Source: Oegoconia quadripuncta
Taxonomy: Eukaryota > Arthropoda > Insecta > Lepidoptera > Autostichidae
NCBI GenBank assembly: GCA_949316235.1
Contig: OX438748.1
Span: 4,839,001-4,903,000, forward strand
Direction: 5' to 3'
Length of the DNA: 64,000 bases
Shown: positions 21,809 to 61,800 of the stretch, one piece after another
How positions within the stretch are numbered: position 1 is the first letter of the stretch
Layout: each line of letters opens with the position of its first letter
Made by a program: the position numbers and the translations under genes
Notes under the pieces: generated by a model
What the model was told of the DNA's origin: nothing
Databases searched by the model: none
The model's input: only the letters and a program-made list of their open reading frames with translations

Positions 21809-22035
21809 TGTTATGCGGTGGACCCCGTTTGGTTTTTAAAAAAAAACTAATTTATTCGACACACCCGTTTATTATAAAAATTCGAGATTGCCTCGGTCTC
21901 AGGACCCGAAATTCTTGGACACGCGCGGTGTAGGTGCTAGGAAAAGACTGCTTGTGACCGCGTGGCGTAAACTAGTTTTATTAGAAGGAAAGTTACGAGT
22001 CAGCATTTTACTCGGTATTAATTATGGGTATAACA
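21809..22035 (-). repeat. 3' LTR of the errantivirus
   Basis: 227 bp, TGTTAT...ATAACA. On the sense strand AATAAA occurs at the complement of 21851-21856 (GAATAAATT) and again nearer the middle (ATAATAAACG). Identical to the 5' LTR except for one T/A difference in the homopolymer near 21836-21846. Confidence 0.95.
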
Positions 22036-22267: not shown

Positions 22268-24286
22268 TTAGTTATTTGTTAAGTTCCTATTTGAACTTCT
22301 TAATCTATCTCTATAATTTAATTGACAAGGCAAAGATTTAACTGATATCTCTTCTTCATTATTACCAAGAGATACCTCAGATAGTTCTATAGAATTACTT
22401 GAACTTAACTTACTTTGATTTTTGTTACCACACTGGTTAAATATTTGGATACAACAACCAGTAGAATTATGTGAGGTACCTTTACAAAAGAAGTACTTAT
22501 AAAGTTTATACAACGAAAACAAAAATATAGAAACAATGGCTAAATATGTCAAGGCAGAGTAATAACTACTATATTTAATAATATGAGGTTGATCCTCAAT
22601 TTTATTTAATTCTTGTTCTAGTCCGTCGATCTTATGCGCGGCTAGATTCAAAGATTCTAAGTCGATGTGAGTTAAGGTTATCGGAGATAATGAAGGCAGA
22701 GTTTTATTATATATCTCCTTTTTACAACAGTCATCTGAAACTATATCAAAATCTAATAATAATTGACTTGGAACAATAAAATCGTTATCTGTGCTCGGCA
22801 CGAATTGGATAGTTTTACAATAAGCTATACAGTTCTCAGGTAAGCTTAGTACACCTGTACCCAACAGTGGATAGTCTGCGACATTGCTATCACATTTTAC
22901 AGTGAGCTTATTTGCTTTTGATTGCACAAAGATCCATTTGTTATTGTTTAATTTCTGCCATATATCTATAATTCCATATAGCAATTTAGAATTACATTCC
23001 GAAGGTAAGCTCAGGGCGACTTCGGTTAATAATCGAGTTTCGCAGATTGGATTATTTATAGTAGAAAATATAGAAATAAGAGGACATATTGAATATAACT
23101 TATTAATTAACTTACAGTCACTAAGACTATTGAAAGTAGTATAACTTAATCTATCGTCAGTTACAGCTAAATACAAATGTGAGGGATAGATGAGGGCAAA
23201 GGAATTAGGATTTTCGGGGTAGTGCGGAGTTGGTAGAGGGATAACCTTGAAAACGTCAAATTTAGTAGGGGATATGAGAGGTATTCTTAACACAAAAAAT
23301 ATTTTACCATTAAAATAATAAGAAATTAGCTTAGATACATCTATAATTATATGGATGTTATCTATATTGAGCGATGCGGGGAAATCTAAGTTCCTCTTAA
23401 CAGAGTTGGAATGTTTTTCAAGTTCGCTCAGCAGTGTCATAGGGTTGATAACACTGGGATGAAGAATGTTTGCTTTGGCAAACAAGATTGAATTTAAGAT
23501 AGTATCGAGAGCATTGGAGATGACCAGCAGTGAACTCTCTATTATATTAGCAAGGTTATTGACCTTAATCATAACAAAATAATAATTATTATTTTGGTTT
23601 AAGTTTATTAGAATAACCTCTAGGGTCTGTAATCTTTTATTTAACTTATCTTCGTTACTAGTTAGCTTAGAAATAGTAGAATTAAAATTATTAATAGTAG
23701 ATTTAATTACGTGTATATTTTCTTTCATTAATTTCAATAACTCTTTATCGCTGTCTTGACAGGCTGATAAAGCGCTATCATATTTTCTAGCATCGTCGGC
23801 ATCGAGGGTGCCGAAAAAGAATTTTAGAACTTCTCCTCCAAATTCTAACGATCTCTTGGAGCGATAATGGGATTTAGTAGAAATAATATGTGATAAGGAC
23901 TCGAATTTGGCAATGTTTGATTGGTATAGGACTTCGAGAGGATTATAAAAATCTTTACAATCACTATTTATAAGAGATGAGGCTCTTAAGCAAAAATCTA
24001 GAGTGTTATCCAGCATCTGCTTCACGTTTGCTAGATGTGGTTTAAATGGTATGATATCTACATTTGTTACAATGTTCCAAAAATCATTGAAATAATACAC
24101 AGAGCGTTCAGGGTCATAGTATAAACCAGGGCTGTGTTGTATAGTATCTATCGAAGCCAGCGGTTCGCAGAAAACCAGCGGCGTATATCTGAAATAGAAA
24201 TTGTTTAGTTTGACACTATATAGAAGCGCATCAGTTACGCGCGGGTTTGATTTCATTGACGTGGTACTTAACATGTTTACGACCAA
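22268..24286 (-). CDS. env: errantivirus envelope glycoprotein (F-like fusion protein)
   Basis: 672 codons, uninterrupted. Errantivirus Env proteins are membrane fusion glycoproteins related to baculovirus F and are made from a spliced RNA. Visible here: a furin-type RSKR at residues 142-145; directly after it a hydrophobic segment with FFFGTLDADDARKYD, characteristic of the F/Env fusion subunit; a coiled-coil-like stretch around 175-260; cysteine-rich ectodomain at 380-525; one membrane anchor at about 577-598 (ALTYLAIVSIFLFSLYKLY); and a cytoplasmic tail of about 70 residues. Several N-x-S/T sites are present. The first 40 residues lack a clear signal peptide, so the true N-terminus may come from an upstream exon. 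The frame overlaps the pol end by 56 nt. Intact; function inferred from the family. Confidence 0.9.
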   Translation of the reverse strand: MVVNMLSTTSMKSNPRVTDALLYSVKLNNFYFRYTPLVFCEPLASIDTIQHSPGLYYDPERSVYYFNDFWNIVTNVDIIPFKPHLANVKQMLDNTLDFCLRASSLINSDCKDFYNPLEVLYQSNIAKFESLSHIISTKSHYRSKRSLEFGGEVLKFFFGTLDADDARKYDSALSACQDSDKELLKLMKENIHVIKSTINNFNSTISKLTSNEDKLNKRLQTLEVILINLNQNNNYYFVMIKVNNLANIIESSLLVISNALDTILNSILFAKANILHPSVINPMTLLSELEKHSNSVKRNLDFPASLNIDNIHIIIDVSKLISYYFNGKIFFVLRIPLISPTKFDVFKVIPLPTPHYPENPNSFALIYPSHLYLAVTDDRLSYTTFNSLSDCKLINKLYSICPLISIFSTINNPICETRLLTEVALSLPSECNSKLLYGIIDIWQKLNNNKWIFVQSKANKLTVKCDSNVADYPLLGTGVLSLPENCIAYCKTIQFVPSTDNDFIVPSQLLLDFDIVSDDCCKKEIYNKTLPSLSPITLTHIDLESLNLAAHKIDGLEQELNKIEDQPHIIKYSSYYSALTYLAIVSIFLFSLYKLYKYFFCKGTSHNSTGCCIQIFNQCGNKNQSKLSSSNSIELSEVSLGNNEEEISVKSLPCQLNYRDRLRSSNRNLTNN

Positions 24287-26672
24287 CTGATAATATTACA
24301 TTAGTTTTTCCTTGCAATTTTATAATTTTGTATGGACCTTTCCAAATAGGAGACAAGGCCTTACGAAGTCTATGATGTTGCCTTAAGTAAACTTGGTCGC
24401 CTGATTTATAGGAAGTATCACGGCTAGATTGGTCATAGTATTTTTTGGAAATTTCCTTACTTTTGGAAATGTTTTCCAAAGCTTTTTGGCGGCTAAGTTT
24501 CATGCGATATTGTAGAGCGCGGATATATTCATGATAGGTATTAGTGTTAGAGTCATATAAGGAACTAGGAATAGTAGGTTTATATCCATATAATAGTTCA
24601 TATGGGGTGAATTGTGTCGTACTATGAGGCATAGTGTTAAAGGATAAAATTGCGGTAGAAAGGTAACAATGCCAATCGTTTTGATTGTCATTCACAAAAG
24701 ATTTTAGATACTCTTTTAAGGTAGCGTGACTACGTTCTAACGCGCCGTTAGTTTGAGGGTGATAGGGACTAGTAAATAAGGATTTAATTTTACAAATTTC
24801 TGTAACTTGTTTGAAGAGCTCAGAGGTGAAACAGGTACCTAAGTCGGTAAGAATGGTTTTTGGAAAACCGAAAAGAGAGGTAAAATGTATTAAATTACGA
24901 GCAATTTCGTCACTCGTGGAAGATACCATGGGATAGGCATTTGAAAATTTGGTTAAGTCATCTTGGAGTGTTAATAAAAACTTGAATTTTTGAAAACCCG
25001 CTTCGGGTAATGGACCTACGACATCTAAGGCAAGTCTCTCAAAAGGGCGAGTACTAGATGACGTGATTTCCATAGGAGCTTTATTACAGGCGCGCAAAGG
25101 CTTGTTGATTTGGCACATTTTACAACTTTTTACATAATTTTCGATGTCGGAACGCATCGATTTCCAATAGTAAGAGGCCTTTAATCTGTTGTACATCCTT
25201 TTCATTCCAGGATGACCTGCAATAGGAGAGTCATGATTTTCTTTGAGTAATTTAGGCACTTCGGCCGGAGTAGGGTAAATAATTTGATTTTTGTAAATAT
25301 GTATTTTCAAATTTGTATTGTGAAAAATGAAACACATCATATTATAAATCTTGTTATACGCTAATTTAGAAAAGGGTTCCGAGAAGTCGGAGATAGCGAG
25401 GTCATTAGCGTCAGCATTTTCATGCACAAGCTTATCGCGTAGTTTTATTAGGATACTAAATATTGTTTTAAAGTTGACTTCATCATAATGATGCACCTTA
25501 GTAAATAAGAAATAGTAATTTTTATCGTTGGAATGGTAAGATGAGACGGTCTCTGATTGCCGTTCGGTTGCGAGTAACTCGGATGAGTCATGTAATTGAG
25601 ATATGATCTCTTGGATTTGAGGGATAGATTCGTCAAAATCTAGAGAGGTTGGACAAGCTATTATCTTGTATTTAGATAGGTGAAGTGGTTGGGAGTGTTC
25701 CTCAATCACTGTGTTAGAGGAAGGTAGAGAGTTAGTGAATTGCAATTTGAAATACTTTTCATAAGGGATGTTATTTAATTTATCGTGATCGATTGCATGG
25801 ATGGGAATGCGAGATAGAGCATCGGCGTTTGAATTTTGTTTGCCTTGCTTGTATATGATCTCGTAATCATATTCCTCCATTTTGAGTCGCCAACGAATGA
25901 GACGGCTCCCGGGGTCTTTGACATTGAAGAGCCAGACAAGGGGCCTATGATCTGTGACGATCTTAAATTTATTTCCATATAGATAGGGTCTGAAGGTTTT
26001 TATTCCAAATAGAATAGCGAGAAGCTCCTTTTCAGTGGTTGAATAATTTCCTTCTTGTTTGTTTAAAGTGCGGGACGCGTATGCTATAGGCTTATCTTTA
26101 CCGATATCGCCTTGAGATAAAATTGAGCCGACTGCGAAATTTGAGGCGTCCGTCGTTAATATGAAGGGTTGCTTAAAATCTGGATACTGTAGCAACGGAG
26201 CTGAAGTTAGAAGGTCTTTGAGAGAATTGAAGGCTTGTTCTTGTTCATGAGACCAATAGAAGATAGCGTCCTTCTTAAGAAGAGAAGTAAGAGGCTTTAC
26301 GATTTTCGAAAAATTATTAATAAATCGTCGATAGTAGCCAACTAGTCCGAGAAAGGATTTGATGTCCTTGGGTGTTTTCGGCTTAGGATATTCTTTGACT
26401 ACTTTGACTTTGTCCGGATTTGGTAATACACCTTTATCGGTGATGATGTGCCCAAGATAGGTGACTTCACGTCTGAGGAATTCACATTTATCGGGCTGGA
26501 GCTTGAGGTTAAACTCACGAAATCGATTGAAGACTAGTTTTAATTTGGAAATGTGAGATTGAAGGTCGTGGCTGTACAGGATACAGTCATCAAGATAGAT
26601 GTAGCAATGAAGACCTTGGAGACCAGAAAGAACAGTGTTCATGAGACGCTGGAATGTGGCAGGGGCATTTTT
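24231..26672 (-). pseudogene. pol: errantivirus pol, 3' part: RT palm to integrase
   Basis: Continues the pol frame directly after the in-frame TAA. Counted from the Met at 26642 (803 residues): YLDD of RT at 16-19; RT thumb and connection; RNase H with D165 (TTDAS), the TEKELLAI segment at 203-210 and D231 (DHRPL); linker; integrase zinc finger H470, H477, C507, C510; catalytic D540, D600 and E636, a D,D(35)E spacing; and a C-terminal GPY/F-like segment (WKGPYKII, about 768-775). No further break. It would act in reverse transcription and integration as part of Gag-Pol, but is separated from gag by the stop. The annotated Met is only the first ATG after the stop, not a natural start. Confidence 0.9.
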
Positions 26673-28046
26673 TTAGCCGAATGGCATCCTGGTGAACTCA
26701 TAGTGCCCAGATGTGCCGTTAGTACCCACAATAGTAAAACCAGTTTTTGCTGCGTCAGCAGGGTTTAATTTAAGTTGATGAAAGCCACTGGCGAGGTCCA
26801 GGGTCGTGAAATATTTTGAATGTCCTAATTGATCTAGGATGTCGGTGATAAGAGGCAGAGGATAGATTTCGGATACAGTGACGTCATTTAAGCGGCGGTA
26901 ATCGATAACTACTCGCCATTTTCGTTTGCCTGAGGCGTCCATCTTTTTTGGGACCACCCAGACTGGGGCGCTCCATGGCGAATGAGAAGATCTAATAATG
27001 TCTTGCTCTAACATTTTCTTAATTTGATTTTCCACTTCTTCCTTGTGGCATTCAGGGAATCGATATGATTTGACGTGGATTGGAGCTGAATTTCCGGTAT
27101 TAATTGAATGTTGAATGGCGTCTGTACTTGTGAGTGGTTCGCCTTCGAGATGAAAGATGTCACTATATTGAGAGCAGCATTCTAAGAGCGCTGATTTTTC
27201 TTCAGCGTTGAGATGAGAGCAACGGATTTGGTTGAGAACTCGATCTAAACGATCTGAGGTGGATGAGGGAGATATAGCATTAATTTGCGTTTCTGGTACA
27301 GATTCAGAGGTGATGTTATCGAGAGGAGTGAGGCTTATAAGATAGTCTTTAACTACGACATCATGCTCGGTTGTATTTAAAACTGAGACATTTATTCTCA
27401 TACTTGGTTTAATTTTAACTAACGAGTTAGCAACATAAACACCTTCGCAGATTTTATGATCTAGAACAAGAGCTTCACTAAGGTGCTGGAGCTCTTTATG
27501 ATCATTTGAGATGGCACATTCGATAACTGTTTCTGATCGTGCCGGTAGGACATAGGAAGGCTCGCTGAAGGAAATAGGAATAGAATGACCTTGTATGATA
27601 AGGATGCTTTGTGAATATATTATATCTGCTTGCAATGACTTCAGGAGATCATTTCCAATGATACCGTCATGTCGGAGATTGACGTTATCGTCCACAGCGT
27701 GAAATATATGATTGAAGCTGGTGGAACCTTGGTTGATTACGTCATAATTGAAATCGAAATATAACTGTAATGTACCTAAAGTTTCGTAGCTAGAGTCAGA
27801 ACTATTTATGCCTCTAATTTTGACTTTATTGTCTATACACAGATGAGGATTCTGTGTCGATTTTGGTAATTTTATTAGGCTGATGCTCGCTCCTGTATCA
27901 ATGAGGAACCGTAGAGGTTTCTCAGATAAATGAGTTTTAATAGAGACTTGAGGTAACGAGACGTTGCAGCTGATACTTTTTATCTCATAGCTAGGCATAG
28001 AAGAACTTGCAGTGCGAGATTCAGATGATGGAACATCGAGGTTAGT

Positions 28047-28310
28047 ATGAGGTTTAGTACAAGATTCAGTGTTAGAATTAGCATAAGATTTAGTATAAGA
28101 TTCAGTGGTAGATTTGGTATGAGATTTAGTATTAGATTTAGTATTACATTTAGTATTAGGTTTAGTATTAGATTTAGTATAAGATTTAGTATTAGATTTA
28201 GTATTAGATTTAGTATTAGATTTAGTATAAGATTTAGTATTGGATTTAGTATTAAATTTAGGATAAGATTTAGTATAAGATTTAGTATTAGATTTGGGAG
28301 AATTGGTAAA
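28047..28310 (-). repeat. 12-bp tandem repeat coding TKS tetrapeptides in pol
   Basis: About 20 imperfect units of TTTAGTATTAGA (plus strand), read on the minus strand as Asn/Tyr-Thr-Lys-Ser. The unit length is a multiple of three, so copy-number change keeps the pol frame. It separates the frameshift site from the protease. Confidence 0.85.
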
Positions 28311-28325
28311 AGATTTAGAATGGGT

Positions 28326-28388
28326 CGTGTCCTTACTACATTTGTTAGATTTCGGCTGACACGTGACCGAAATCTGATTCAGTTTAAA
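28326..28388 (-). promoter_or_regulatory. -1 ribosomal frameshift signal with H-type pseudoknot
   Basis: On the sense strand the last gag codons are AAT TTA AAC TGA, so the heptamer T TTA AAC (28388-28382) is in the correct X XXY YYZ register and touches the gag stop. Pol is in the -1 frame. After a 6-nt spacer (28381-28376) there is a perfect 9-bp stem, AGATTTCGG (28375-28367) with CCGAAATCT (28355-28347). Within the 11-nt loop, CGTGTC (28363-28358) is complementary to GACACG (28331-28326), giving a 6-bp second stem, loop 1 of 3 nt, and a 15-nt A-rich loop. This matches the geometry of known retroviral and coronaviral -1 signals. Function is inferred; the pairing is directly visible. Confidence 0.88.
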
Positions 28389-29386
28389 TTATCATTTTCA
28401 TTACAATCATAGTCAGAGTCATGTTCTACGTGCATTATCATTTTATTCGGTGCGTTTGTACTTGCATCGGGCTGTCTTGGTTGCGACGGTCCCGATTGTT
28501 GATATGAGCGCTGAAATTGTACACCGGTATTGTTATCTGTGCGGCGTTGATTATTATATTGTCGCTTCCTACATTCATTAATTGTGTGACCTAGATTTTT
28601 ACAATAGGCACAACTTTTTACATTATTAGAAATAGAATTATTATGCACATGATTTAAGGGCATTACTTTTTGTATAGATTTATTTTTATAGCATTCAGAT
28701 GAGCTATGGCCCTTCTTATTACATATAGAACATTGCTTAGGGCTTTTATAAGTAACATTGCTTAATTTATATATTTTCTCCTCCTCAACAGCATGTGTGA
28801 TAGCATCATTGAGGGATGTTGGGTTACGACAGCGGACAATATACGAAAAGTTAGGGTTTAGACCCATAATAAAAGTGTTCAAGGCTAGGTCATCCATTGC
28901 GGCGATCCTACCTATTAATTCTTTTTTTTCTGCACAATTATTTTGGATATCGGCTTGTAGTCGTGTTAAGCACGATTCCAATCGCAAAGAATATTGAGTT
29001 ACGGTTTCGGATGGTAACTGCCTACAATTTTGGAGATCAATAAGGAGATGTGACGAATGTTTTTTCTCTCCGAAGCTTGATCTCAGGAAATATTTCAAAT
29101 CTGACCAAGTGCTAAAATTCTTAAGGCTACATGCTAACTGCGCCTTGCCTTCTAGTTGGGAAATAATAAATTTACATAGGATGGTTTGCTGTTCAGTACT
29201 GGCTAATGAGACAGCATTATCACAATTTGTGAGAAAGGCGGCTAGTGTTTCTCTGTCGCCTTTATATGGTTTTATGAACTTAGTGAGGAAGCTAAGGGTG
29301 ACTTTTTCGGCCATTTCTAAGGAGCCTTTAAGGTTAGATTTTGATTTGGGAGTTCCCACTACTTCAACAAATTCGAAGAGGGACAT
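28379..29386 (-). CDS. gag: errantivirus Gag polyprotein
   Basis: 335 codons, intact. Residues about 25-205 form a Ty3/gypsy-type capsid region (for example FSTWSDLKYFLRSSF at 91-105 and TVTQYSLRLE at 128-137), the part that assembles the particle. Two CCHC zinc knuckles follow, C219-C222-H227-C232 and C259-C262-H267-C272, which bind genomic RNA, then a basic, Gln/Asn-rich tail. An alternative ATG is at residue 25. The stop TGA lies in the frameshift site and overlaps the pol frame by 10 nt. Confidence 0.92.
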   Translation of the reverse strand: MSLFEFVEVVGTPKSKSNLKGSLEMAEKVTLSFLTKFIKPYKGDRETLAAFLTNCDNAVSLASTEQQTILCKFIISQLEGKAQLACSLKNFSTWSDLKYFLRSSFGEKKHSSHLLIDLQNCRQLPSETVTQYSLRLESCLTRLQADIQNNCAEKKELIGRIAAMDDLALNTFIMGLNPNFSYIVRCRNPTSLNDAITHAVEEEKIYKLSNVTYKSPKQCSICNKKGHSSSECYKNKSIQKVMPLNHVHNNSISNNVKSCAYCKNLGHTINECRKRQYNNQRRTDNNTGVQFQRSYQQSGPSQPRQPDASTNAPNKMIMHVEHDSDYDCNENDNLN

Positions 29387-29949
29387 ATATAGGGTAGGAT
29401 TTGGAACAGTGTTATACTCTACTTATATATAAAAGTAAAAATAAAATGAGTCTTTATGAATTCGCGCACATTAAAGTTGAGATAAGATCACTACACTTCA
29501 CTGCACTTTAACGAGATTTAGGTTGTGATGAGATAGTCTAGGATTTGGAAAAAATTGACTCACAGTAGTATGATGAGCAGCTTCATAGATACAGTGGATT
29601 GCGACGTCCAGGTAAAATCCAGCGACTCAGGGAGTCGTATAGGAAACTAAGATGATGATCCAGGTAGCGGCAGGGTCTCGAACAGACAGCGCTGGCTCAC
29701 GCCACAAGGCGGAGGCTGATAGTCGACTGACAGGGTGGTGGAGATGCAGGCTCACGCTAGAAAAGCGGAGGCTAACAGCAGGACTCTTGGTGCTGGTGCT
29801 GATGACGCTGGCTCACGCGAAAAGCGGAGGCTAACAGTCGACCACGTGGCGCACACGCACTTCACGAACACGAGGGTCCGGGTTTCGGATACCAGGCTCC
29901 GTAACGACGCGACGGAAGAGCTCACTGGTATCCCACTTCTGACACCAAT
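29387..29949 (-). other. errantivirus 5' leader with triplicated motif
   Basis: Untranslated leader between the primer site and gag. It contains three related units of about 36 nt (29691-29727, 29747-29783, 29807-29842), each with GGCTCACGC followed by GCGGAGGCT(A/G)A. Packaging or regulatory roles are possible; none is shown. Confidence 0.6.
29931..29947 (-). promoter_or_regulatory. primer binding site, tRNA-Leu type
   Basis: The sense strand reads TGGTGTCAGAAGTGGGA two bases after the 5' LTR. Its complement ends in CCA and agrees with the 3' end of tRNA-Leu as I remember it. Location and TGG start are certain, tRNA identity less so. Confidence 0.75.
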
Positions 29950-30176
29950 TGTTATGCGGTGGACCCCGTTTGGTTTTTTAAAAAAAACTAATTTATTCGA
30001 CACACCCGTTTATTATAAAAATTCGAGATTGCCTCGGTCTCAGGACCCGAAATTCTTGGACACGCGCGGTGTAGGTGCTAGGAAAAGACTGCTTGTGACC
30101 GCGTGGCGTAAACTAGTTTTATTAGAAGGAAAGTTACGAGTCAGCATTTTACTCGGTATTAATTATGGGTATAACA
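29950..30176 (-). repeat. 5' LTR of the errantivirus
   Basis: 227 bp with the same ends as the 3' LTR. It should carry the promoter. An AT-rich TTTTTATAATAAA segment may serve as TATA region, which I cannot confirm. Confidence 0.95.
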
Positions 30177-61140: not shown

Positions 61141-61393
61141 AAATCCACCAATCCGGCATGAATAAACTATTTATGTAAAAGCAGTCGTGTGTTTCTTATA
61201 ACCTAATCGAACAACTGTACGGTATGCCCGGCGGTTTTTCGGTTGGTTGGTCGGCTAGTAATAGACGGGTAATAGACCGATTACCAACAGACAAAACATT
61301 AACTAATACGTAAAAAATTGGTCGGCTAATACTAAGAATTCATATTACTAACCAGGCTGGTTGATGGTTAAGAAAAAAAATTACTAACCGTCC

Positions 61394-61800
61394 AACCAGG
61401 TGGACAGAGTGGTTGGTCGGCTAGTAATATACGCAACCAGGTGGACAGAGTGGTTGGTCGGCTAGTAATAGACGCAACCAGGTGGACAGAGTAATTGATC
61501 GGCTAGTAATAGACGCAACCAGGTGGAAGAGTGGTTGGTCGGCTAGTAATAGAAGCAACCAGGGGGACAGAGTGGTTGGTCGGCTAGTAATAGACGCAAC
61601 CAGGTAGACAGAGTGATTGGTCGGCTAGTAATAGACGCAACCAGGTGGACAGAGTAGTTGGTCGGCTAGTAATAGACGCAACCAGGTAGACAGAGTGATT
61701 GGTCGGCTAGTAATAGACGCAACCAGGTGGACAGAGTGGTTGGTCGGCTAGTAATAGACGCAACCAGGTGGACAGAGTGGTTGGTCGGCTAGTAATAGAC
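61394..61800 (+). repeat. 41-bp minisatellite, about ten units
   Basis: Unit: AACCAGGTGGACAGAGTGGT, TGGTCGGCTAGTAATAGACG, C. Ten units with single-base variants (TGATTGG, TAGTTGG, GGGGG) and one-base deletions. An ancestral-looking unit lies upstream at 61241-61285 (GGTTGGTTGGTCGGCTAGTA). Bases 61141-61393 hold no other feature. Confidence 0.92.

What the first reader, a model, noticed from the sequence alone, without database searches (positions are those of the whole stretch)
28326..28388. Textbook -1 frameshift signal with a predicted H-type pseudoknot at the gag-pol junction
Seen directly: heptamer T TTA AAC in gag register touching the gag TGA, pol in the -1 frame with a 10-nt overlap, 6-nt spacer, perfect 9-bp stem with 11-nt loop, and six loop bases (CGTGTC) fully complementary to GACACG 15 nt after the stem. 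All distances fit known -1 signals. UUUAAAC is the slip site of several coronaviruses and retroviruses, and errantiviruses are known to need a -1 shift for Pol. A complete pseudoknot of this geometry in an insect errantivirus may be undescribed. The gag UGA placed just after the slip site may also tune efficiency.
Basis: partly seen in the sequence, partly recalled or inferred. Interest (0 to 1): 0.82.

Follow-up and report, generated by a model that had tools for sequence, protein, structure and literature searches.

The report
Frameshift signal of insect endogenous retrovirus
A young insect endogenous retrovirus carries a classic "slip back one base" signal, with a predicted RNA knot, exactly where its gag gene meets its pol gene; the protein trace of the slip site recurs in its moth and butterfly relatives, so it is a good new example of a known device rather than a new kind of thing.

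Summary
On the minus strand T TTA AAC (28388-28382) abuts the gag TGA. Pol is in the -1 frame, which opens at the slip site itself because a -1-frame TAA stands directly before it (10-nt overlap). A 6-nt spacer, a 9-bp stem (10 with U.G) and a 6-bp second stem follow. The knot is rare by chance: 0 of 20,000 shuffles, 0 of 200,000 synonymous recodings; of 993 canonical heptamers in the window only this one has it. Stem 2, given stem 1, is less compelling (1.3% of shuffles). The element is errantivirus-type: LTRs 226/227 identical, Gag, Pol, baculovirus-F-type Env. Gag ends Leu-Asn-stop in 88 of 120 listed homologues, Lys-Asn-stop in 7, Leu-Asn plus 1-6 residues in 24, which fits a conserved U_UUA_AAC or A_AAA_AAC. 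No DNA of a close relative was obtained, so stem covariation is untested, and no activity is measured. A distant gypsy-type locus shows the same slip-then-stop plan, G_GGA_AAC then TAG. This copy's pol has an in-frame stop in RT. Verdict: a real -1 frameshift signal, new member of a known kind.

The parts
28382..28388 (-). slippery heptamer T TTA AAC, in gag register
   Evidence: Leu-Asn at this place in Gag homologues
28379..28381 (-). gag stop codon TGA, directly 3' of the heptamer (first half of the spacer)
28389..28391 (-). TAA in the -1 (pol) frame directly 5' of the heptamer, which bounds the shift window
28376..28381 (-). 6-nt spacer TGAATC
28367..28375 (-). stem 1, 5' arm AGATTTCGG (T28366 adds a U.G pair)
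   Evidence: pairing probability 0.9-1.0 for most pairs
28347..28355 (-). stem 1, 3' arm CCGAAATCT (G28356 adds the G of the U.G pair)
28358..28363 (-). stem 2, 5' arm CGTGTC within the stem 1 loop
   Evidence: 0.85-1.0 unpaired in the non-knotted ensembles
28332..28346 (-). loop 3, 15 nt, spanning stem 1
28326..28331 (-). stem 2, 3' arm GACACG
   Evidence: its first base is mostly paired elsewhere in longer non-knotted folds
28379..29422 (-). gag open frame (347 codons from stop to stop): Retrotrans_gag, CCHC knuckle below its cut-off
26673..28388 (-). pol, first piece: repeat-rich linker, protease (RVP, just above its cut-off), N-terminal part of RT; ends at an in-frame stop
24231..26672 (-). 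pol, second piece in the same frame: rest of RT, RNase H, integrase
22268..24295 (-). env, Baculovirus F protein family
29950..30176 (-). 5' LTR, 227 nt; GTGC target-site duplicate at 30180-30177
21809..22035 (-). 3' LTR, 226 of 227 identical to the 5' LTR; GTGC at 21808-21805
28006..28343 (-). 12-nt tandem repeats coding for the K-S-x-T-type pol linker, just 3' of the signal (the repeat tool's outer limits overlap the last bases of the signal)

Best explanation
This is the programmed -1 ribosomal frameshift signal of an errantivirus-type insect endogenous retrovirus. Ribosomes reading gag reach UUA AAC with a predicted H-type pseudoknot 6 nt ahead. Most terminate at the UGA that follows at once, giving Gag. 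A minority re-pair both tRNAs one base back (UUU AAA) and read on as CUG AAU CAG..., giving Gag-Pol. Shown here: register, overlap, spacing, non-random structure, lineage-wide Leu-Asn or Lys-Asn at the Gag C-terminus. Inferred: that the codons behind those residues are slip sites, that stem 2 forms and stimulates, that slippage is tandem, and the Gag:Gag-Pol ratio.
For: Pol can be reached from gag by a -1 shift only inside the 10 nt between TAA 28391-28389 and TGA 28381-28379, and that stretch holds one canonical heptamer. UUUAAAC, spacer 6, S1 10, S2 6, L1 2, L3 15 sits among the viral pseudoknots tabulated in PMC3835772 (e.g. IBV: UUUAAAC, spacer 6, S1 11, S2 7, L1 1, then 32 and 0; Berne torovirus 5, 11, 6, 2, 10, 0; passages seen; which loop each column means is my reading). 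Chance controls. S1 main pairs stay at 0.98-1.0 in contexts of 127-501 nt. A rough nearest-neighbour sum with a recalled 9.6 kcal/mol pseudoknot penalty gives -18.7 against -12.1 kcal/mol for the hairpin alone. Gag homologues end LN-stop 88, KN-stop 7, LN + 1-6 aa 24, none of these 1, of 120 listed; the representatives of all 87 clusters at 75% identity have one of the three types. In an alignment of 36 of the 121, Asn347 is in 36 of 36 and Leu346 in 34 of 36, after a linker where most columns vary. 28 of 51 animal elements in a 2003 survey had pol in -1, many with classical heptamers (section read, PMC5009743). Drosophila gypsy pol is described as read by a frameshift (passage, PMC4276936). 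A distant gypsy-type locus, L001, also has a canonical heptamer at the end of gag with pol in -1.
Against: No DNA of a close relative was obtained, so neither stem is tested by covariation and the codons behind Leu-Asn in relatives are unseen. Given stem 1, stem 2 arises in 1.3% of shuffles, so it is only moderately improbable by itself. Stem 1 alone is commoner in the window (276 of 127,860 positions) than in shuffles. Bulk folding z-score is only -1.0. In longer non-knotted folds the first base of the stem 2 3' arm is unpaired at only 0.07-0.14, the second at 0.53-0.61 and the last at 0.59-0.67. This copy's pol has an in-frame stop in RT, so this copy cannot make complete Pol whatever the shift does. 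No activity data.
Confidence: 0.82

Rival explanations
1. The slip site is real, but the stimulator is the 9-10 bp hairpin alone; the 6-nt complementarity to the loop is coincidence.
For: Stem 1 forms in all seven contexts folded; a stem-loop serves in HIV-1 (abstract and section 21 of PMC4373837); with stem 1 kept, stem 2 arises in 2,624 of 200,000 shuffles (1.3%); stem 2 conservation is unseen and its 3' arm has weak competing pairing.
Against: 1.3% is still unlikely, L1 and L3 lengths fit an H-type knot, the 5' arm is free, and a rough energy sum favours the knot. The zero counts for the whole knot do not isolate stem 2, because stem 1 is already rare there.
Confidence: 0.2
2. Pol is made by another route (splicing into the pol frame, re-initiation, or UGA readthrough) and the heptamer is incidental.
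For: Some database gene models join gag and pol or pol and env pieces (P0149, P0151, P0154), which may reflect predicted introns.
Against: UGA readthrough keeps the gag frame and cannot enter pol. The -1 frame has a stop directly before the heptamer, and Leu-Asn recurs at or within 6 residues of the C-terminus in 112 of 120 listed homologues, which no such route would require.
Confidence: 0.05
3. The hairpin, whose loop holds the palindrome CACGUG, is mainly a genome dimerisation or packaging element (kissing loops), as in the retroviral dimer initiation site.
For: Palindromic loop; loop-loop duplex of 6 bp predicted at -8.1 kcal/mol.
Against: Retroviral dimerisation sites are recalled to lie in the 5' leader, not the gag-pol junction; the distance from the slip site is that of a frameshift stimulator. 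Both roles could coexist.
Confidence: 0.04

Closest known systems
Coronavirus and torovirus UUUAAAC + H-type pseudoknot signals (IBV, Berne virus; PMC3835772 table)
   Same: Same heptamer; spacer 6 vs 6 and 5; long stem 1 (10 vs 11 and 11); stem 2 of 6 vs 7 and 6 bp; loop 1 of 2 vs 1 and 2 nt
   Different: Unrelated virus; loop over stem 1 is 15 nt (32 in IBV, 10 in Berne, on my reading of the columns); 1-nt junction; no activity measured here
Rous sarcoma virus gag-pol signal, with a natural stop right after the slip site (as described in PMC4373837 section 21)
   Same: Retroviral frameshift element with a pseudoknot and a natural stop codon as the codon after the slip site
   Different: Here an errantivirus-type element; stem geometry not compared; effect of the stop not measured here
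Other -1 LTR elements of animals (2003 survey summarised in PMC5009743 section 11; Drosophila gypsy, PMC4276936 passage)
   Same: pol in -1 frame with a classical heptamer (survey); pol read by a frameshift from gag (gypsy)
   Different: The survey itself could not be read, so whether it includes this lepidopteran group or a pseudoknot is unknown to me; the gypsy passage gives no site
TED and other lepidopteran errantiviruses (PMC5803895 passages)
   Same: LTRs with gag, pol and env open frames in moth cells
   Different: The passages seen give no frameshift site; the TED gene-organisation paper is not held, nor was a recalled DOI for a Gag-Pol processing paper found
Gypsy-type element on L001 (JAOXSG010000014.1, a contig filed under a bacterial MAG)
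   Same: Gag and pol overlap in -1; canonical heptamer G GGA AAC (1690-1696) directly followed by the gag stop TAG (1697-1699); candidate 6 + 6 bp knot 7 nt downstream
   Different: 38% RT identity, 70-nt overlap, different heptamer and stems; its knot is weaker evidence (17 of 10,000 shuffles under looser limits, and the plain minimum-energy fold differs)

Membership tests
Programmed -1 frameshift signal (X XXY YYZ with 3' stimulator) | canonical heptamer in 0-frame register within the overlap of the two frames | tested here: met
Programmed -1 frameshift signal (X XXY YYZ with 3' stimulator) | spacer of about 5-9 nt before a stable structure | tested here: met
   6 nt; stem 1 main pairs at 0.98-1.0 in contexts of 127-501 nt
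Programmed -1 frameshift signal (X XXY YYZ with 3' stimulator) | H-type pseudoknot | tested here: inconclusive
   geometry present and non-random as a whole, stem 2 alone 1.3% by shuffling; no covariation or probing
Programmed -1 frameshift signal (X XXY YYZ with 3' stimulator) | slip site conserved in relatives | tested here: met
   at protein level only: LN/KN-stop 95 of 120, LN + 1-6 aa 24 of 120; nucleotides unseen
Programmed -1 frameshift signal (X XXY YYZ with 3' stimulator) | measured frameshifting | not testable with these tools
   needs a reporter assay
Errantivirus-type endogenous retrovirus (Metaviridae) | LTRs with target-site duplication | tested here: met
   226/227 LTR identity, GTGC on both sides (read)
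Errantivirus-type endogenous retrovirus (Metaviridae) | Gag, then Pol as PR-RT-RNase H-IN | tested here: met
   (RVP just above, rve just below its cut-off); Pol is interrupted by one in-frame stop
Errantivirus-type endogenous retrovirus (Metaviridae) | env of the baculovirus F type after pol | tested here: met
   Baculo_F, E = 4.8e-47
Errantivirus-type endogenous retrovirus (Metaviridae) | placement in the errantivirus clade on an RT tree | not tested
   no tree built; the Gag hits that carry an organism name are Lepidoptera

The most novel reading that the evidence does not exclude
A large lepidopteran errantivirus lineage uses one compact 'slip-then-stop' cassette: in this copy the shift window is bounded by a stop in each frame, and across relatives a termination codon directly after the slip site is kept while the Gag linker before it diverges. 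Termination (eRF1) may then compete with -1 slippage and set the Gag:Gag-Pol ratio, with a pseudoknot as stimulator in a fast-changing repeat-rich part of pol. The same slip-then-stop plan in a distant gypsy-type element (L001) and in Rous sarcoma virus would make it a recurrent design.
Probability: 0.35. Interest if true: 0.5.

Novelty: new member of a known kind. Interest (0 to 1): 0.4.

Why it matters
If the knot is real, an insect errantivirus sets its Gag:Pol ratio with the kind of signal used by coronaviruses and some vertebrate retroviruses. The near-invariant Leu-Asn at the Gag C-terminus also gives a simple protein-level marker for finding such sites among annotated insect proteins, and a natural system for asking whether a stop codon next to a slip site tunes frameshifting, which was reported to matter for an altered HIV-1 signal but not for Rous sarcoma virus (PMC4373837).

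Tried and rejected
Related DNA for covariation: viral-contig scans with pol piece 2, a 36-row Gag alignment, a 14-row Pol alignment, Gag homologue P0120 and the stem 1 pattern gave no relative. Genome contigs with the Gag alignment gave none; with the Pol alignment it gave two loci filed under microbial MAGs. L002 holds no junction, because its match lies at the contig's edge. L001 was at first set aside as too distant for covariation; on checking it proved to carry its own slip-then-stop junction and is now reported. tblastn of Gag in phages and plasmids: no match. Rfam on 28200-28500: three hits far below their gathering scores, taken as chance. PHROGs on Gag: none. A blastn self-comparison of the window (E up to 1e-8) showed no further copy of the element beyond the LTR pair and the 12-nt repeats.

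Inferring stems from pol-frame proteins of relatives was considered (P0154 and P0173 begin 'MCQLKPKPPDNG', possibly aligned to 'TCQPKSNKC') and dropped: their start codons cut off the 5' arm and codons are degenerate. Competition by the AAATCT motif of the 12-nt repeats (15 copies including stem 1 itself) was considered; stem 1 main pairs stay at 1.0 in 377 nt that include them. UGA readthrough was rejected because it keeps the gag frame. Two corrections made on checking: the array at 61393-61800 has a 41-nt period, and the stem 2-given-stem 1 control was added.

Full report
What is there. On the minus strand the window holds an LTR element from 30176 to 21809. The LTRs are 227 nt and match at 226 of 227 positions, and GTGC flanks both ends as a target-site duplicate (read). 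Pfam finds Retrotrans_gag in the first frame; a weak protease (RVP, 21.3 bits against a 20.7 cut-off) and RT in the second; the rest of RT, RNase H and integrase domains in the third (integrase core just under its cut-off); and the Baculovirus F family (E = 4.8e-47) in the fourth. That is the layout of an errantivirus. The second and third frames are one pol frame interrupted by a stop at 26675-26673 within RT. I searched the two pieces apart.

The junction. Gag ends AAT TTA AAC TGA. In the -1 frame a TAA stands at 28391-28389, so the pol frame opens at T28388, the first base of the heptamer TTTAAAC. Any productive -1 shift must happen within the 10 nt between these two stops, and one canonical slip site fits there. 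With a U.G pair stem 1 becomes 10 bp, leaving a 2-nt loop 1 and a single-nucleotide junction, a more typical H-type knot.

Chance. Among 20,000 dinucleotide shuffles of the 63 nt after the heptamer, 3 gave a perfect stem of 9 bp or more at spacer 4-9 and none gave the knot. Among 200,000 synonymous recodings of the pol frame, 102 gave stem 1 and none the knot. Sliding the search over both strands of the window, 17 of 127,860 positions had the knot; 6 of these are this structure at neighbouring offsets and 11 are adjacent offsets of one other place. Stem 1 alone occurred at 276 of 127,860 positions, so it is commoner in this repeat-rich window than in shuffles. Of 993 canonical heptamers on both strands this is the only one followed by stem 1 of at least 7 and stem 2 of at least 5 bp. 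Stem 2 on its own is less striking: with stem 1 kept and loop and downstream bases shuffled, a fitting 6-bp stem 2 arose in 2,624 of 200,000 trials, 1.3%. Bulk folding energy is ordinary: z = -1.0, 28 of 200 shuffles at least as stable. In contexts of 127-501 nt stem 1 holds (main pairs 0.98-1.0) and stem 2's 5' arm is free (0.93-1.0), but in the 3' arm the first base is mostly paired elsewhere (unpaired 0.07-0.14), and the second (0.53-0.61) and last (0.59-0.67) partly.

Relatives. A search with Gag gave 136 proteins, of which the best 120 were listed. The rows that carry an organism name are Lepidoptera (Epargyreus, Dendrolimus, Anticarsia, Parnassius, Loxostege, Leguminivora, Euphydryas, Plutella, Aricia, Spodoptera). 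C-termini: 88 end in LN, 7 in KN, 24 in LN plus 1-6 residues, 1 (P0099) in none of these. LN occurs elsewhere in these proteins at 8.2 per 1000 positions. Clustered with the query (121 proteins) at 75% identity, the 87 representatives are 63 LN-stop, 19 LN + 1-6 and 5 KN-stop; at 65%, 49 representatives are 33, 14 and 2. In an alignment of 36 of the 121 proteins, chosen by me from the list for spread, Asn347 is identical in 36 of 36 and Leu346 in 34 of 36, while columns 292-345 before them are mostly variable or gapped, Pro325 (27 of 33) being the main exception. UUA AAC codes for Leu-Asn and AAA AAC for Lys-Asn, so the pattern is what conserved U_UUA_AAC or A_AAA_AAC slip sites would leave. 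It is protein evidence: the codons themselves are not seen.

A second, more distant group (29 proteins) was found with the Gag part of P0149. A pattern of LN followed by a conserved P-R/K/M tail fits 18 of 29 by script; 27 of 29 have LN within the last 32 residues, of which 26 look by eye to be at the same place. This group is Asn-rich (LN 15.7 per 1000), so it counts for less. In many members the gag frame runs on past LN through a conserved tail (GPRPAANPRT-like), which suggests a longer dual-coding overlap there.

A distant comparison. L001, a 4,119-nt contig filed under a bacterial MAG, encodes Retrotrans_gag and then protease and RT in overlapping frames; its RT is 38% identical to this one. 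Its gag ends G GGA AAC TAG at 1690-1699, pol is in the -1 frame, and a 6-bp stem starting 7 nt after the heptamer encloses a loop that can pair by 6 bp downstream. That knot is weaker evidence: 17 of 10,000 shuffles gave one under the looser limits used, and the minimum-energy fold is a different one. It is no test of the stems here, but it is an independent slip-then-stop junction.

What could not be tested. Covariation of the stems needs DNA of close relatives. None came from five viral-contig scans, two genome-contig scans, tblastn in phages and plasmids, or the genome search (twelve requests, never answered). The knot is therefore predicted, not shown.

Literature. PMC3835772 (passages seen) tabulates viral pseudoknots: IBV UUUAAAC, spacer 6, S1 11, S2 7, loops 1, 32, 0; Berne torovirus 5, 11, 6, loops 2, 10, 0. 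The present 6, 10, 6, loops 2, 15, 1 falls among them, if I read the loop columns rightly. PMC5009743 section 11 (read) reports a 2003 survey: 28 of 51 animal retroelements with pol in -1, many with classical heptamers. PMC4276936 (one passage) says that gypsy pol is read by a frameshift from gag. No held paper contains errantivirus + frameshift + pseudoknot (0) or errantivir + slippery (0). Four contain LTR retrotransposon, pseudoknot, frameshift and insect; of these I read parts of PMC5009743 and saw only the listing of the others. Of the 18 papers with errantivirus and frameshift I looked for passages in four; none of those passages describes a slip site. The papers I sought on the 2003 survey and on TED are not held. 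I therefore do not claim print novelty.

The stop next to the slip site. PMC4373837 (abstract and sections 15 and 21 read) reports that with UGA or UAG in place of the codon after the HIV-1 slip site, raised eRF1 cut shifting by 37% and 20%; lowering eRF1 had no apparent effect on those constructs. It also states that in Rous sarcoma virus, where that codon is naturally a stop and a pseudoknot is present, changing it had no effect. In the present lineage the slip dipeptide is followed at once by a stop in 95 of 120 proteins. Termination competing with slippage is thus a testable idea, but simple economy (end gag as soon as the slip site is passed) would explain the pattern too.

Verdict. A real -1 frameshift signal: confidence above 0.9 for the slip site and about 0.75 for the pseudoknot (my estimates). 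It works like the coronavirus and retrovirus signals. Of the defining features of the -1 frameshift class, register, spacer and (at protein level) slip-site conservation are met, the knot is inconclusive, and activity is not testable here. The host species was not identified; Lepidoptera is inferred from the Gag hits.

Noticed in passing
26673-26675 (minus strand): An in-frame stop interrupts pol within RT although the LTRs differ at only 1 of 227 positions, so this young copy cannot make complete Pol.
   Followed up: partly
L001:1690-1699: A distant gypsy-type element on a contig filed under a bacterial MAG (probably eukaryotic contamination) ends gag with G GGA AAC directly followed by TAG, with pol in -1 and a candidate knot downstream.
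   Followed up: partly
28006-28343 (minus strand): 12-nt tandem repeats encode a K-S-x-T-type linker at the start of pol. Spodoptera exigua proteins P0154 and P0173 carry comparable K-S-Y-N-T-type repeats, while P0122, P0126, P0148 and P0151 carry different G-N/S-Q-P-Q/R-type repeats at a similar place: a fast-changing repeat linker between Gag and protease.
   Followed up: partly
proteins P0186-P0198 and others: In a second errantivirus-like Gag group the gag frame continues past Leu-Asn through a conserved tail (GPRPAANPRT..IQAE-like), which suggests a longer dual-coding gag-pol overlap.
   Followed up: no
proteins P0154 and P0173: Two Spodoptera exigua proteins join a pol N-terminus to a Baculovirus F-type Env in one model; either gene-model splicing or a real spliced or rearranged form.
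   Followed up: no
28360-28365 (minus strand): The stem 1 loop holds the palindrome CACGUG, which could pair between two RNA copies (loop-loop duplex -8.1 kcal/mol).
   Followed up: partly
61393-61800: Tandem array of 10.0 copies of a 41-nt unit, 93% matches, in a window rich in dispersed repeats.
   Followed up: partly
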